DNA from: Pontiella agarivorans
Lineage (GTDB): Bacteria > Verrucomicrobiota > Kiritimatiellia > Kiritimatiellales > Pontiellaceae
Direction of reading: 5' to 3'
DNA: 64,000 bases
Assembly: GCF_034531395.1 (NCBI RefSeq)
Contig: NZ_JARVCO010000007.1
Location: 310,001-374,000, forward strand
Numbering within the stretch: position 1 is the stretch's first letter; each line of letters starts with the position of its first letter. The notes beneath the pieces were generated by a model that was not told where the DNA came from, searched no databases, and saw only the letters and a list, made by a program, of their open reading frames with translations. Made by a program: the position numbers and the translations under genes. Below are positions 3,827 through 9,668 of the stretch, piece by piece.

Positions 3827-4485
3827 GCCGCAAAGCCCGATGAACAGGCCGGTAATGAATCCGGCCGCTCAAAAAAGTGGGTAAGTCTCCGCGCCGTGGA
3901 AGCGACTGGATGCGGTGAGATGCGGGAACAATTTCCACGGCGGGGAAATTTTACCCGCCTCGAATAGCCGGCTTCGTCCCTTAAAAACGAAACTTACCGC
4001 GTCGGAAGCATCCCGCTAAAAATCTTGCTGAGCAAACGAACCGTGACGAAAATGTATGTATCTTCAAGATGTGTTGTACGCCATAGAAGGCTCGGATTTG
4101 GAGGCCGTCATTGCCGCCTGGACAGTGACAGTCTGCCCCTGCAACAGCAATTCACGGCGGGCAGCTATGTTTGGACGACGTCATCGAAGCCGTGAACCTC
4201 AGTGTGAAATAATATCCCCATTCCATCGATGTCAAAGCGGAGGTTTTATATCCCTTGCGCGCTGGGCTGTGCCTGCAGTGGTGTACCCTTCTGCCTCCGC
4301 ATGGCCTGATCGGGCCTCTAAACGGGGGAGATGCGTTCCATTGGTTGGAAGCGCACCCCCCGGAGAAGCTCTCCGTCTGCTCACATGTCTCGGAGATTTC
4401 TCCGAAGCGCGAGGATCTGCTCGCCATCCGCCGCAGTCGAGGTACAATGCAGGAAGTGGCAAGTTGATGAGAAAGGATTGTTCGC
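3827..4485. other. Intergenic region without a convincing gene
   Basis: Reading frames here are short or are shadows of the YdbH-like gene. One copy of the TTCCA-N5-TGGAA palindrome lies at 4336-4350. I see no RNA gene. A GGCGGGG-type inverted sequence near 3938-3960 repeats the motif seen at 3489. Confidence 0.5.
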
Positions 4486-7086
4486 TTGGCGATGAAACGA
4501 CGGATGAAAATACTGCGGGGCGTGCTGGTGGTGGCGGTCTTGGCGGGAATCATACTGTTTCTGCAGGTGGTGGCGCTGCCCGAACTGCTACATCGTTTAA
4601 TAGAGTCTGGACTGAGCGATGCCGGGTTGCCGGAAGCGACGCTGGAGGTGCGAAGTTGCTCCTGGCGTGGCGCCGATCTCATGAATGTGTGTCTTGATGG
4701 AGAACGCTGTAATTTTATCGGTGCTGTGGCTGTTGAATATTCGCCGCGTTCGCTGATGCAAAGGCGTCTGAAGCGAGTGCAGATTATCGGCGGCCAGATC
4801 TTGATGCGTGCGCGGAACGGCCGTCTTGAACCGGTGAATCTGCCGAAACCGAACCCCGGAGGCGGTGGCGGGAAGGCTGCCCCCTTCGATTGCATCGAAT
4901 GGACTTCCTGCATGGCGGTGATGGAATGGAAGGACCAGCGCATCGGCATTCCTTTCAGCGGTTCGATCCGCACTGGCCGCGACCGGTTGAGGGGACACCT
5001 TGACCTGGCTCTTCAGGGGGTTCCGTTGCGGGTGGAGCTGACGAAGAGGGGGGCCGGGGAGGCTTTCTCCTGTGCCGTTTCCGGGCAGACTGCTGATCGG
5101 AGTGGCGCGCCGGCCGCGCATGATTTTCAGTGCGACATCGCAGGAACGGCCGAAGGATATATCTTCGAGGGACGTGCGAAGGGACCGCGTTGGAAGCTGA
5201 ATCGGTTTGCCGGCTGCTATTCGACCGAATCGGCGGACGCTCCCACGACCATGGTGGAGTGGGAGCTGGAAGGTCACGCCCCGGATTGGCTGTTAAAACA
5301 GCTGGCGGACCGCGGCTATGATCTCTCGAAACTCGGCGCAACGCGGATCAGCGGGCAACTTCGGACGGTGCCGGCGAAGCCGTCCGGCCGTCGACTGCCT
5401 GATTTTGAAATTCCAGATCTGCAGGTGGTGGTGGAGCCTGGGCGGTTGGCGATCCGGAAGCCAAACGTCTCGCTGCGCGGGCTCTCTGGTGACGTGAGGC
5501 TGCGCGGGCGTTGTGAGAATGGGCTGATCCGCCTTTCCGCGTTGCCGGACAGCCGGATGGAATTTGATGCTGCCGACTTCGGAGCGGTTACCATCGAAAA
5601 AAGTGTCCTGGACCCGATGGCCGATGACCCGTGCGTATTCGAATGCCAGATTGATGAAGGCGGGGCTCCGGTCCGGCTGCATCTGGCGGCCACGAGCGAG
5701 GACATGACTGTTGTTTCGGAAAAGGCCCGCCTTTCGGCTGCGTTGAAAAACGCCCGGATTTCACTTGAAGCGAGGTCGGGTGTGAACCCGGTTGCGAGCG
5801 GTATGATATCCGCTGGTGGGGTGACGTGTCATTTGGGGTCATCCCGGCTAATGTGGGCGCTGAAAGACGCGGTATGGAAGATGGATCGGAGTACGGGCGG
5901 CCTGATTGATTCGACGCTGGCCTTGAATCACGTCGCGCTGTTGCTGGATGAGTCGAAAGAACTTTTCGTGCTGGCGGGGGACATGCTGAAACCCGTATCC
6001 GCCCTCTATAATCCCGCTCGGCACGAGGGCCGGATCCGATTGGAATGGCCTCTGCAACCGGACGCGATACTGTACGCCAATGGACAGATCAATTTCCGGG
6101 AAAAACGGCCGAACGGTTTTCTTTCGGTTTCGTGCGACGGGTTTCTGGTGGATGAGGAACAGACCGCGATCCGACAGCTGACCGATGCCACCGGACTGGT
6201 CGTGAAGGGCGGCTTTTCCGTGGCGGGGAATGTGCGCCTGCGGGAAGGCCGCATTGTCCCGTGGATCACCTTGGCCGCCACCGATGCAATGCTTGCGAGC
6301 GCGCGCTATCGGGCCATCGCGGAAGGCATCGATGGTGCTATGACCTTTACGGGGTTCGGTCCGATGTCCACCCCGGGCAATCAGCAGTTCCGTATCCGGC
6401 GGTTGACGCTGGGAAATCTGCCGCTGCGTGACGGTTTGCTGGCGGTGCGCCTTGAACGCGACCCGAGGGCGATTCTTGTGGAGCGTGCGGAATGGGGCTG
6501 TATGGGCGGTCGCATATATAGCCGGGCCATGCGAATCGATCCCGACCATCCCCGGATCGACGCCCGGTTTTTTGCAAACGGGGTGGAAATGAGAGAACTC
6601 TTCAACTTGGCCTTTGGCGAGGGCGGCTCGGGCAGTGGTGCGCTCTACGGCATGATTCCCGTCAGCCTTTCCCGGTCCAATCCGACCGATTTCTCTATCG
6701 GGGAGGGATTTCTTCATTCGACCACCGGAACTGGCACTTGGACGCTGGCGGAGGGAGACCACGCCAATCTGATCCAGAAAGCCCTTGAACAGCAGCTGGG
6801 AAGCCTGCTTCAGCAGACGGTCGAAGTGGATGTTCGGGATCGGATTTTCAAAGGCTTCCGAAATTTCGAATACAGCATGTTCAAAATTGATTTCGTGCGG
6901 CGAAGCGATGGACTGCTCGGCCGGGTCACCACGCGGGGGCACAGTCGGAATCAAAAGATTCCGGTCGAGTTCGAAGAGATCGTTTTAGACTTTCCCGGGC
7001 TCGATGACAACCTACGCAAAACCATGCTCATCAAGACCGCATTGGGTCAGGGCATCCGTCAGGTGGGAGCATCGGCCGAACCCTGA
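4486..7086 (+). CDS. YdbH-like intermembrane (AsmA-superfamily-type) protein
   Basis: This 866-residue protein has one N-terminal membrane anchor (about residues 10-30) followed by a very long beta-rich periplasmic region. The C-terminal part (about 700-860) looks like the YdbH family 'dicarboxylate transport' domain, with IGEGFLHSTTGTGTWTLAEG and the RDRIFKGFRNFEYS region. In E. coli YdbH works with the lipoprotein YnbE and with YdbL in a bridge between inner and outer membrane that is linked to phospholipid transport. Support comes from the next gene, whose N-terminus resembles YnbE. The start is TTG at 4486 (AAAGGA about 10 nt upstream) or ATG at 4492. I see no YdbL gene nearby. Confidence 0.82.
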   Translation: MAMKRRMKILRGVLVVAVLAGIILFLQVVALPELLHRLIESGLSDAGLPEATLEVRSCSWRGADLMNVCLDGERCNFIGAVAVEYSPRSLMQRRLKRVQIIGGQILMRARNGRLEPVNLPKPNPGGGGGKAAPFDCIEWTSCMAVMEWKDQRIGIPFSGSIRTGRDRLRGHLDLALQGVPLRVELTKRGAGEAFSCAVSGQTADRSGAPAAHDFQCDIAGTAEGYIFEGRAKGPRWKLNRFAGCYSTESADAPTTMVEWELEGHAPDWLLKQLADRGYDLSKLGATRISGQLRTVPAKPSGRRLPDFEIPDLQVVVEPGRLAIRKPNVSLRGLSGDVRLRGRCENGLIRLSALPDSRMEFDAADFGAVTIEKSVLDPMADDPCVFECQIDEGGAPVRLHLAATSEDMTVVSEKARLSAALKNARISLEARSGVNPVASGMISAGGVTCHLGSSRLMWALKDAVWKMDRSTGGLIDSTLALNHVALLLDESKELFVLAGDMLKPVSALYNPARHEGRIRLEWPLQPDAILYANGQINFREKRPNGFLSVSCDGFLVDEEQTAIRQLTDATGLVVKGGFSVAGNVRLREGRIVPWITLAATDAMLASARYRAIAEGIDGAMTFTGFGPMSTPGNQQFRIRRLTLGNLPLRDGLLAVRLERDPRAILVERAEWGCMGGRIYSRAMRIDPDHPRIDARFFANGVEMRELFNLAFGEGGSGSGALYGMIPVSLSRSNPTDFSIGEGFLHSTTGTGTWTLAEGDHANLIQKALEQQLGSLLQQTVEVDVRDRIFKGFRNFEYSMFKIDFVRRSDGLLGRVTTRGHSRNQKIPVEFEEIVLDFPGLDDNLRKTMLIKTALGQGIRQVGASAEP

Positions 7087-7179: not shown

Positions 7180-7815
7180 ATGAAATTTGGATTGTTTATC
7201 GTTCTGACCGTCGCTCTATTGTCACTCACGGGCTGTTTCAACATGAAGATGCAGCCGATCAAGGTGGAGCCCGTTCACATGACGCTGGATATCAACGTCA
7301 AACTCGAACAGCAGGAGATCGAGGACGCGGCGGCGGAAATCTCGCCAGTGATCGGAAAAACAGCCCCCGACTTCACGCTGCCGGACCAAAACCAGCGTCC
7401 AGTGACTCTCCGCCAGTTTCGGGGAAAATGGGTGGTGCTCTATTTCTACCCGAAGGACGGAACTACTGGGTGTACCCTGGAAGCCAAGGATTTTACGGCC
7501 CTGCTGCCCCGCTTTCATGAAATGAATGCTGAGGTGCTGGGAGTCAGCGAGGATTCATCTCAGTCGCATTGCGACTTTATCGCCCAGCACGAACTCAAAC
7601 TGTTGCTGTTGAGCGATCCGGACCACACAGTGATGGAACAGTACGGCGCGTGGGTGGTCAGTTCATTCGGAAGCTTGAGCTACGGCCGGATCATCCGTAC
7701 CACGATGATCATCGACCCGGCGGGCGTCATTCGCCACTACATGCCGGAAGTCATGCCGCAGGGGCATGCCGATCGTGTCCTCGGAAAGCTGGCGGCCTTA
7801 CAGACCTTCCAGTAG
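7180..7815 (+). CDS. Lipoprotein: YnbE-like segment fused to a Bcp-type peroxiredoxin
   Basis: The start at 7180 (second ATG, GAGGTG 4 nt upstream) gives a lipoprotein signal with lipobox LTGC. The Cys is residue 19 from this start. The next 40 residues, including EPVHMTLDINVKLEQQE, resemble the small lipoprotein YnbE, the partner of YdbH in E. coli. From about residue 56 on, the protein is a Bcp/AhpC-TSA peroxiredoxin: GKTAPDFTLPD, VVLYFYPKDG, and the peroxidatic Cys in GTTGCTLEA (residue 98). The usual resolving Cys five residues later is Lys. The next Cys is in SHCDF, 33 residues on. The gene follows the YdbH-like gene by 93 bp on the same strand. The fusion is one uninterrupted frame, and its role is inferred. 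Confidence 0.85.
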   Translation: MKFGLFIVLTVALLSLTGCFNMKMQPIKVEPVHMTLDINVKLEQQEIEDAAAEISPVIGKTAPDFTLPDQNQRPVTLRQFRGKWVVLYFYPKDGTTGCTLEAKDFTALLPRFHEMNAEVLGVSEDSSQSHCDFIAQHELKLLLLSDPDHTVMEQYGAWVVSSFGSLSYGRIIRTTMIIDPAGVIRHYMPEVMPQGHADRVLGKLAALQTFQ

Positions 7816-8000
7816 GCGGTTGCGGACCATCGCCGAGGGGAGCGCCATGCGGGGGAAACTCTCCTCATTCGCGAAGCGCGTTCCGCGCAACATCACGTCG
7901 AGCGCAAGACTGATAATCGTAAAAAAGAGGGATGCCCCTTCCCATCAACCTTTTAGCGCGGTATTGTATCCGCGGTTCAACAGCGGGACGAGGAGGGGTC

Positions 8001-9668
8001 ATGGTCCAATTTGAGGGCGTAGAGAGTCTGACGCGGATGTTTGTTTTAGTGAGCGGCGAGCTTGTCGGTATCATCGTTGGGGGGCTGCTGCTGGGTTTAA
8101 TGACACGCCTGATCCTGGGCCGCATCGGTTTGATTCCGGCCATGCGAGATCATCCGGAACGCCTTGCAGGCCTCCGTCGGCGGATCCGGTACGTGTTGAT
8201 TTCCGCCTGTCTGGGACTCTGCCTGGGTGCGCTGGGACTGAACGGGTATCTGGTCTTCCAGCGAACCGATCCCTACGTTCAGACCACGGAGTGGATTAAC
8301 GCGATCCCCCCCGACTTTTGGCTGAAGCTGGCCTTGAGTCTGGCCAAAGTCATCGGACTCGTGATTGCGGGTCGGATGGTGATCAATATGCTGGTACGCC
8401 TGTTAAACAGCCTTATGGGCAAAGCAAAGGCCTTTGAGGGAATCCGCGCCAACGATGAAAGCATCGAAGTGTTCTTCTCATCGCTGACCGCCATCCTTTC
8501 GAACTGCATAAAATTTCTCGTGGTCATCGCCGCGGCTGCACTGCTTTCGTTACCGGGACCAGTGGCGGCCTATTTGCTCGCCGCGCTGTATATCTATCTT
8601 TTTTTCACCATCGGCCTGCTGGTTGTCAAGGCCGTCGCGGCCATTGTCGACAGCCTCGATGCGTTGAGCAAGAAATACTCCAGCCCCGACAATTGGCTGC
8701 GCCACTACGAAAAGCTCAGTATCCTGATTCCTCTCTTCCGGCGCTGCCTTGAATATGTCATCTACGTCACGGTAGCAACGCTGGTTATCCTCCAGCTGAG
8801 TTTCATCGAGCGCTTCGCCGTCATAGGTCCACGGCTGACGAAAGTCATTGGCATTTTCTTCATCAGCCGGGTCATCATCGAGATCGGAAACATTTTGATC
8901 GATCGTTTCCAGCAGGAGCAGAAAAACCTGACCGAGAAAGAGCGAAAGCAACGCCTGACTCTCATCCCGCTGATGAAGAGCGCCATGAAGTATGTGGTTT
9001 ATTTTACCGCCATCCTGCTGGCCCTTAATGCGATGAACTTCAATCCAGCCCCGCTGCTGGCCGGGGCCGGAATCATCGGTATCGTTATTGGACTGGGCGC
9101 CCAGCCGCTGATCAACGATTTAGTTTCGGGCCTCTTCATCCTTTTCGAAAGCCTCTATCTGGTCGGTGACTATATCGAGACTGGGCAGGGCCGCGGGGTG
9201 GTTGAATCGATCGATATCCGCACCACCCGGCTGCGCGATCCCGGGGGGCAGCAGCATATCCTGCGCAACGGACAGATCGGCGACATCATCAACTTCTCCA
9301 AACGCTACACCTTTGCCGAGGTGGAGGTGGGCGTGGCCTACGATACCGATCTCGACCTCGCCTACACGGTGCTCGCGGAAGTCGGGCGGAAGATCCGTGA
9401 AGTGAATCAGGATGTGCTCGAGGATATGAAAGTGCTTGGCCTGCAAAACTTCGGGGAATCGGAGCTGCTGCTGCGGACGATCACTCGCGTCAAACCGGGT
9501 TGCCATCAGCAGGTCGCCCGTGATTTACGCAAACTGATCAAAGAAGCCTTCGACGGCCAAGGTATCGAAATCCCATACGCACGGCGCGTCCTCATTTTCA
9601 AAACGGAAACAGAAGAAAATCCGCTGAAGGACAACACGTCATCGACTTTGTCCGACAGAATGCGCTGA
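8001..9668 (+). CDS. Mechanosensitive ion channel, MscS family (large)
   Basis: This 555-residue channel protein belongs to the large MscS subfamily. Several hydrophobic segments lie in residues 10-340. The MscS pore helix and start of the beta domain are clear at about 345-395 (AGAGIIGIVIGLGAQPLIND, LVGDYIETG), followed by the beta and alpha-beta domains to about 530. Such channels open under membrane tension during hypo-osmotic shock. The frame is open upstream to 7932, but the ATG at 8001 has a strong AGGAGGGG site just before it. The C-terminal 25 residues are polar and probably disordered. The gene follows the lipoprotein gene on the same strand. Confidence 0.92.
   Translation: MVQFEGVESLTRMFVLVSGELVGIIVGGLLLGLMTRLILGRIGLIPAMRDHPERLAGLRRRIRYVLISACLGLCLGALGLNGYLVFQRTDPYVQTTEWINAIPPDFWLKLALSLAKVIGLVIAGRMVINMLVRLLNSLMGKAKAFEGIRANDESIEVFFSSLTAILSNCIKFLVVIAAAALLSLPGPVAAYLLAALYIYLFFTIGLLVVKAVAAIVDSLDALSKKYSSPDNWLRHYEKLSILIPLFRRCLEYVIYVTVATLVILQLSFIERFAVIGPRLTKVIGIFFISRVIIEIGNILIDRFQQEQKNLTEKERKQRLTLIPLMKSAMKYVVYFTAILLALNAMNFNPAPLLAGAGIIGIVIGLGAQPLINDLVSGLFILFESLYLVGDYIETGQGRGVVESIDIRTTRLRDPGGQQHILRNGQIGDIINFSKRYTFAEVEVGVAYDTDLDLAYTVLAEVGRKIREVNQDVLEDMKVLGLQNFGESELLLRTITRVKPGCHQQVARDLRKLIKEAFDGQGIEIPYARRVLIFKTETEENPLKDNTSSTLSDRMR

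What the first reader, a model, noticed from the sequence alone, without database searches (positions are those of the whole stretch)
7180..7815. Fusion of a YnbE-like lipoprotein to a Bcp-type peroxiredoxin beside a YdbH-like gene
The lipid-anchored N-terminal 50 residues look like YnbE, the outer-membrane partner of YdbH, and the YdbH-like gene is directly upstream. The rest is a complete peroxiredoxin with the peroxidatic Cys but without the usual nearby resolving Cys. This would tether a peroxidase to a lipid-transport bridge, perhaps to reduce lipid peroxides or sense oxidation of the bridge. YdbH-YnbE cooperation is known in E. coli; the fusion is an observation here and the role is inference.
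Basis: partly seen in the sequence, partly recalled or inferred. Interest (0 to 1): 0.78.

Follow-up and report, generated by a model that had tools for sequence, protein, structure and literature searches.

The report
Lipid-bridge lipoprotein fused to peroxiredoxin
In two closely related marine anaerobes, the small lipoprotein that should hold the outer-membrane end of a lipid-carrying protein bridge is joined to an antioxidant enzyme (a peroxiredoxin), which sits where nearly all relatives carry the helper protein YdbL.

Summary
The fusion is real. Window 7180-7815 (+) encodes 211 aa: a lipoprotein signal peptide (Cys19), a YnbE-like strand segment (about 19-56) and a complete PrxQ/BCP peroxiredoxin (58-205), 93 bp after a YdbH-like gene (PF11739, E=6.5e-23). 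The genome matches Pontiella agarivorans NLcol2. P. sulfatireligans has the same gene pair (fusion 71% identical) in different flanks, so it is no sequencing error. Pfam's YnbE model does not match, but it also scores free YnbE-like lipoproteins of other PVC ydbH operons below threshold. A profile of those scores the window at 37-40 bits (best of 2000 shuffles 11.4). Of 106 PVC YnbE-like loci, 64 are YnbE-YdbL fusions (plus three probable), 37 are free YnbE with YdbL alongside or elsewhere in the genome, and two are YnbE-Prx. Both Prx-fusion genomes lack detectable YdbL. The peroxiredoxin keeps its catalytic residues and an alpha-3 Cys131 that may be the resolving Cys. Best reading: an outer-membrane YdbH partner whose YdbL position holds an apparently active PrxQ. 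Whether the Prx replaces YdbL functionally, or only adds peroxidase activity, is inference. The strain's major fatty acids are saturated, which argues against lipid hydroperoxides as main substrate.

The parts
4486..7086 (+). YdbH-like AsmA-family protein (866 aa), putative inner-membrane-anchored lipid bridge
   Evidence: PF11739 E=6.5e-23; orthologue in P. sulfatireligans directly 5' of the same fusion, 47-50% identity
7170..7175 (+). Shine-Dalgarno GAGGTG for the fusion gene
   Evidence: conserved in P. sulfatireligans (TTGAGGTGCATCATGAAA)
7180..7815 (+). YnbE-PrxQ fusion lipoprotein, 211 aa
7180..7233 (+). lipoprotein signal peptide (residues 1-18), lipobox LTG|C
   Evidence: sequence; only 33% identical between the two species, versus 77% for the YnbE part
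7234..7347 (+). YnbE-like segment, residues 19-56: lipidated Cys19 plus strand motif PIKVEPVHMTLDINVK
   Evidence: PVC YnbE profile 37-40 bits; invariant C, P, N and K columns in alignment A1
7351..7794 (+). PrxQ/BCP peroxiredoxin domain, residues 58-205
   Evidence: PF00578 E=3e-39; AlphaFold2 pLDDT mostly 93-99; Xanthomonas PrxQ 5iiz Z=25.6, rmsd 1.5 over 152 residues
7471..7473 (+). peroxidatic Cys98 in PxxxTxxC (PKDGTTGC)
   Evidence: invariant P91, T95, G97, C98 in 30 PrxQ
7570..7572 (+). Cys131, candidate alpha-3 resolving Cys, 33 residues after Cys98
   Evidence: conserved in P. sulfatireligans; in predicted helix 127-137; Xanthomonas PrxQ has its alpha-3 Cys three residues further on (Cys48/Cys84; alignment)

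Best explanation
The gene encodes an outer-membrane-anchored YnbE-type lipoprotein. Its short strand docks on the C-terminal edge of the YdbH-like bridge encoded just upstream, extending the lipid groove to the outer membrane. Its C-terminus, the position held by YdbL in most PVC relatives, is instead a catalytically competent PrxQ. The fusion therefore does two jobs: it completes the lipid bridge, and it fixes a thiol peroxidase (Cys98, probably with Cys131 as resolving Cys) at the outer-membrane end of the bridge. Because YdbL is missing where the Prx is present, the bulky soluble Prx may also do in cis what YdbL does for YnbE, namely limit strand stacking. Shown: fusion, synteny, family of both halves, no detectable YdbL, purifying selection on both halves. 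Inferred: docking, catalysis, outer-membrane location, replacement of YdbL.
For: N-terminus scores 37-40 bits with a PVC YnbE profile built without it. It lies directly 3' of ydbH in both genomes, and only this gene pair, not its flanks, is shared. Both halves are conserved (YnbE 77%, Prx 75% identity; dN 0.14 and 0.17, dS saturated) while the signal peptide is at 33%. All PrxQ signature residues are present: PxxxTxxC, Gly before Cp, Arg173. The Prx is predicted confidently and matches PrxQ structures. Of 106 PVC YnbE loci: 64 YdbL fusions plus 3 probable, 37 free YnbE (36 with YdbL on the locus, the other with YdbL elsewhere), 2 Prx fusions. YdbL is undetected in both fusion genomes by Pfam and by a PVC YdbL profile that finds it at E<=6e-16 in five others.
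Against: Docking could not be modelled: the YdbH C-terminus plus fusion read-through gave pLDDT 33 with only 3 sequences. The YnbE segment alone is low-confidence and partly helical in the model. Both fusion genomes are one lineage, so fusion and YdbL loss count as one event and may coincide by accident. A periplasmic reductant for the Prx was not looked for. Outer-membrane sorting rules are not established for this phylum.
Confidence: 0.68

Rival explanations
1. The Prx domain is a functional substitute for YdbL: mainly a steric or holdase-type cap that stops YnbE strands stacking on each other, with peroxidase chemistry secondary.
For: Same C-terminal position as fused YdbL in at least 64 of 106 loci; YdbL missing only in the two Prx-fusion genomes among YnbE-bearing genomes tested. 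YdbL is reported to prevent runaway YnbE multimerisation (Kumar, Davis and Ruiz 2024, from memory; paper not held). Some peroxiredoxins are chaperones (AnPrx6, PMC5719442, title).
Against: Full conservation of catalytic residues in both species argues that enzyme activity is selected. Only one lineage. No structural likeness of Prx to YdbL was tested.
Confidence: 0.35
2. YnbE is used only as an outer-membrane anchor for a periplasmic peroxidase; the bridge function is carried by something else or lost.
For: The Prx is complete. The YnbE part could serve as signal plus linker.
Against: The strand motif is as conserved as the Prx (77% against 75%) while the signal peptide is not (33%). ydbH is retained next door. 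No other YnbE-like gene was found in the genome by the A1 profile.
Confidence: 0.15
3. One reading: the tethered peroxidase reduces phospholipid hydroperoxides carried by the bridge.
For: Xanthomonas PrxQ was crystallised after hyperoxidation by cumene hydroperoxide (5iow), so bulky organic peroxides fit the fold.
Against: Reported major fatty acids are saturated (C18:0, i-C12:0, i-C18:0) and the strain is an obligate anaerobe (PMC10880615), so lipid hydroperoxides should be rare. H2O2 from brief oxygen exposure is likelier.
Confidence: 0.12
4. Assembly or frameshift artefact joining two genes.
For: None found.
Against: Independent genome of a second species has the same fusion, same joint, 71% identical.
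Confidence: 0.01

Closest known systems
YnbE (E. coli, PF13617) in the ydbH-ynbE-ydbL operon
   Same: Short lipoprotein with an ITxxxNVK-type strand motif, encoded directly 3' of ydbH
   Different: Carries a peroxiredoxin instead of ending after about 60 aa; sequence below PF13617 detection; no ydbL beside it or found in the genome
YnbE-YdbL fusion lipoproteins of PVC bacteria (seen here)
   Same: Same N-terminal YnbE segment, same association with YdbH, a C-terminal domain expected in the periplasm
   Different: C-terminal domain is PrxQ, not DUF1318/YdbL
PrxQ/BCP peroxiredoxins (e.g. Xanthomonas campestris PrxQ, 5iiz; E. coli Bcp)
   Same: Fold, PxxxTxxC, Gly before Cp, Arg; a Cys in alpha-3 as in Xanthomonas PrxQ
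   Different: Lipid-anchored with a YnbE strand; alpha-3 Cys at +33, one helical turn from the +36 position; the genome's own stand-alone PrxQ has the alpha-2 Cys
Other BCP fusion enzymes (e.g. Prx-nitroreductase fusion, 4eo3)
   Same: BCP domain fused to another module
   Different: Partner there is an enzyme domain, here a membrane-bridge docking segment

Membership tests
YnbE (PF13617) | Match to the Pfam model above its cut-off (25.8 bits) | tested here: not met
   No hit at E<=10. The model is too narrow for this phylum: PVC YnbE-like proteins tested from ydbH operons get 9.5-14.6 bits or no hit; E. coli YnbE 59.3. So it is filed as PVC YnbE-like, not as PF13617.
PVC YnbE-like lipoprotein family | Match to a profile of free and YdbL-fused YnbE-like proteins next to ydbH | tested here: met
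   37-40 bits, E 2e-9 to 2e-10, best of 2000 shuffles 11.4 bits
PVC YnbE-like lipoprotein family | Lipobox, and gene directly 3' of ydbH | tested here: met
   LTGC at residues 16-19; 93 bp after ydbH
PVC YnbE-like lipoprotein family | Usual companion: YdbL fused, or encoded in the genome | tested here: not met
   No YdbL in G000 or G022; this is the departure from the family pattern, not a criterion for the YnbE segment itself
YnbE | Beta-strand augmentation with the YdbH C-terminus at the outer membrane | tested here: inconclusive
   Read-through model failed, pLDDT 33
YdbH-like AsmA family | PF11739 above cut-off | tested here: met
   81.9 bits, cut-off 26.3
PrxQ/BCP peroxiredoxin | AhpC/TSA fold with PxxxTxxC, Gly before Cp, and active-site Arg | tested here: met
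   PF00578 134 bits; invariant P91, T95, G97, C98, R173; Gly before Cp as PrxQ hallmark (PMC5302317); fold match Z=25.6
PrxQ/BCP peroxiredoxin | Resolving Cys | tested here: inconclusive
   No alpha-2 Cys; Cys131 in alpha-3 conserved in both species; disulfide formation not testable
PrxQ/BCP peroxiredoxin | Peroxidase activity | not testable with these tools
   needs an assay

The most novel reading that the evidence does not exclude
A peroxiredoxin has replaced the YdbL chaperone of an intermembrane lipid bridge, acting in cis as a cap on YnbE polymerisation whose strength depends on the redox state of the Prx, so that lipid traffic to the outer membrane is tuned by oxidation.
Probability: 0.2. 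Interest if true: 0.82.

Novelty: new variant of a known kind. Interest (0 to 1): 0.62.

Why it matters
How bulk phospholipid reaches the outer membrane, and what YdbL does for YnbE, are open questions. The survey shows that in PVC bacteria YnbE is often covalently tied to YdbL, good genomic evidence that the two work as a unit. The Pontiella fusion is a natural exception in which YdbL is gone and an unrelated soluble enzyme stands in its place. That makes the YdbL role testable (is any bulky cis domain enough, or is chemistry needed?) and gives a rare case of an antioxidant enzyme built into a putative lipid-transport bridge.

Tried and rejected
PF13617 as the test of YnbE identity: no hit, but the model also scores the tested PVC YnbE-like proteins below its cut-off, so it was replaced by a leave-out profile. 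E. coli YnbE itself scores only 9.6 bits with the PVC profile, no better than shuffles; the link to E. coli YnbE rests on the motif plus the ydbH-ynbE-ydbL context. Read-through model of YdbH C-terminus plus fusion failed. Origin of the Prx domain: the quick tree set it apart from the clade's own PrxQ, but the AU test did not reject placing them together and found a better tree, so origin is unresolved. An alignment mixing YdbH and PrxQ rows misaligned YdbH and was not used. Weak YdbL-like hits in G000 (E=0.046, in a sigma-factor-like frame) and G022 (E=0.18, in a non-YdbL frame) were rejected. Promoter and terminator scan: no forward promoter-like or terminator-like site between ydbH and the fusion, and one promoter-like site at 4421-4448 before ydbH; consistent with one operon, but such matches are weak evidence.

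Full report
What is there. ORF 7180-7815 (+) encodes 211 residues. The start at 7180 is supported by a Shine-Dalgarno sequence conserved in a second species. Residues 1-18 are a lipoprotein signal peptide ending in LTG before Cys19. Residues 19-56 hold the motif PIKVEPVHMTLDINVK. Residues 58-205 are an AhpC/TSA domain (PF00578, E=3e-39). The gene begins 93 bp after the stop of a YdbH-like gene, 4486-7086 (PF11739, E=6.5e-23). The assembly (12 contigs, 4,436,865 bases) matches the published one of Pontiella agarivorans NLcol2, an obligate, catalase-negative anaerobe (PMC10880615).

Is the N-terminus YnbE-like? Pfam PF13617 finds nothing at E<=10. Genomes of the same order and phylum carry free lipoproteins of roughly 60-90 aa directly 3' of YdbH-like genes, with the same motif, for example GCLNVKTEPIEVKPIHITVDVNVKVEKALDDFFGD. 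PF13617 scores those tested at 9.5-14.6 bits or not at all, under its 25.8 cut-off, although relatives sit beside, or are fused to, YdbL (PF07027, down to E=1e-22). A profile built from 20 of them, leaving out the window and Pontiella, gives the window fusion 37 bits and its first 62 residues 40 bits (E 2e-9 and 2e-10 in a set of about 17,500 sequences), P. sulfatireligans 41-44 bits, and the best of 2000 shuffles 11.4 bits. So the segment belongs to a PVC YnbE-like family. E. coli YnbE is too far away to be tied to that family by sequence alone (9.6 bits); operon context makes the link.

Is the fusion real and functional? P. sulfatireligans F21 has the same gene, 71% identical over its length, after its own ydbH. 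A comparison of the two neighbourhoods shows that only this gene pair is shared. The YnbE part is 77% and the Prx part 75% identical, with dN 0.14 and 0.17 and saturated dS, while the signal peptide is 33% identical and YdbH 50%. Both halves are therefore under purifying selection. No other genome in the genus set has YdbH or a YnbE-like protein detectable by these searches.

The peroxiredoxin. It has PxxxTxxC (Cys98), Gly before Cp, Arg173 and a confident predicted fold (pLDDT 93-99 for most of the domain) matching Xanthomonas PrxQ at Z 25.6, rmsd 1.5 over 152 residues. Cys131, 33 residues after Cp, lies in the predicted alpha-3 helix, is conserved in P. sulfatireligans, and recurs in about a tenth of the related PrxQ examined. 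The resolving Cys position is known to vary in PrxQ (PMC5302317). The genome's own stand-alone PrxQ has the alpha-2 Cys instead. The ancestry of the fused domain is unresolved.

The informative context: YdbL. In 346 class genomes, 85 have a YnbE-like protein. Together with phylum loci, 106 non-redundant loci were classified: 64 YnbE-YdbL fusions plus three with a divergent YdbL-like tail (judged by eye); 36 free YnbE with YdbL on the same locus; one free YnbE whose genome has YdbL elsewhere; and the two YnbE-Prx fusions. YdbL was sought in both Prx-fusion genomes with Pfam and with a PVC YdbL profile. The profile finds YdbL at E<=6e-16 in all five comparison genomes, and in the two fusion genomes gives only chance-level hits (E 0.046 in a sigma-factor-like frame, 0.18 in a non-YdbL frame). 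The Prx thus stands where YdbL stands in relatives, and only where YdbL is gone. Both fusion genomes are one lineage, so this is one evolutionary case.

How it may work. In E. coli, YdbH interacts with the outer-membrane lipoprotein YnbE (PMC12977461 and PMC11784454). From memory of Kumar, Davis and Ruiz 2024, which is not held here, YnbE adds a strand to the YdbH groove and YdbL prevents runaway YnbE multimers. By analogy the Pontiella protein would dock its strand on YdbH and hold a PrxQ at the outer-membrane end. Two roles for the Prx are open and not exclusive: peroxidase at that site, favoured by full conservation of the catalytic residues; and a cis cap replacing YdbL, favoured by the swap pattern. 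Lipid hydroperoxides as main substrate are less likely because the reported major fatty acids are saturated. The attempt to model docking failed and leaves that step inferred.

Verdict. A genuine variant of the YdbH-YnbE-YdbL system, not described in the papers that could be searched, seen in two species of one genus, with a clear domain swap and testable consequences. The survey also shows that YnbE-YdbL fusion is the commonest architecture among the PVC loci examined.

Noticed in passing
L121 823-1332, L133, L141 2940-3698, L142, L164 and about 60 further loci: YnbE-like lipoproteins fused to a C-terminal YdbL (DUF1318) domain are the commonest form among the PVC loci examined; this supports YdbL acting on YnbE in cis.
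   Followed up: yes
PF13617 versus PVC YnbE-like proteins: Pfam PF13617 misses a large PVC branch of YnbE-like lipoproteins; a new or widened model is warranted.
   Followed up: partly
L122 1093-1326, L124 4123-4365, L121 823-1332, L151 2313-2528: In several PVC genomes the ynbE-like open frame directly follows the ydbH stop codon in the same reading frame.
   Followed up: no
genus set of the window (28 genomes): Only 2 of 28 genus-level genomes have YdbH and a YnbE-like protein; the gene pair sits in different flanks in the two, suggesting loss elsewhere or movement as a cassette.
   Followed up: partly
window 7932-9668: MscS-family channel gene downstream of the fusion (PF00924), not found in the P. 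sulfatireligans neighbourhood examined.
   Followed up: no
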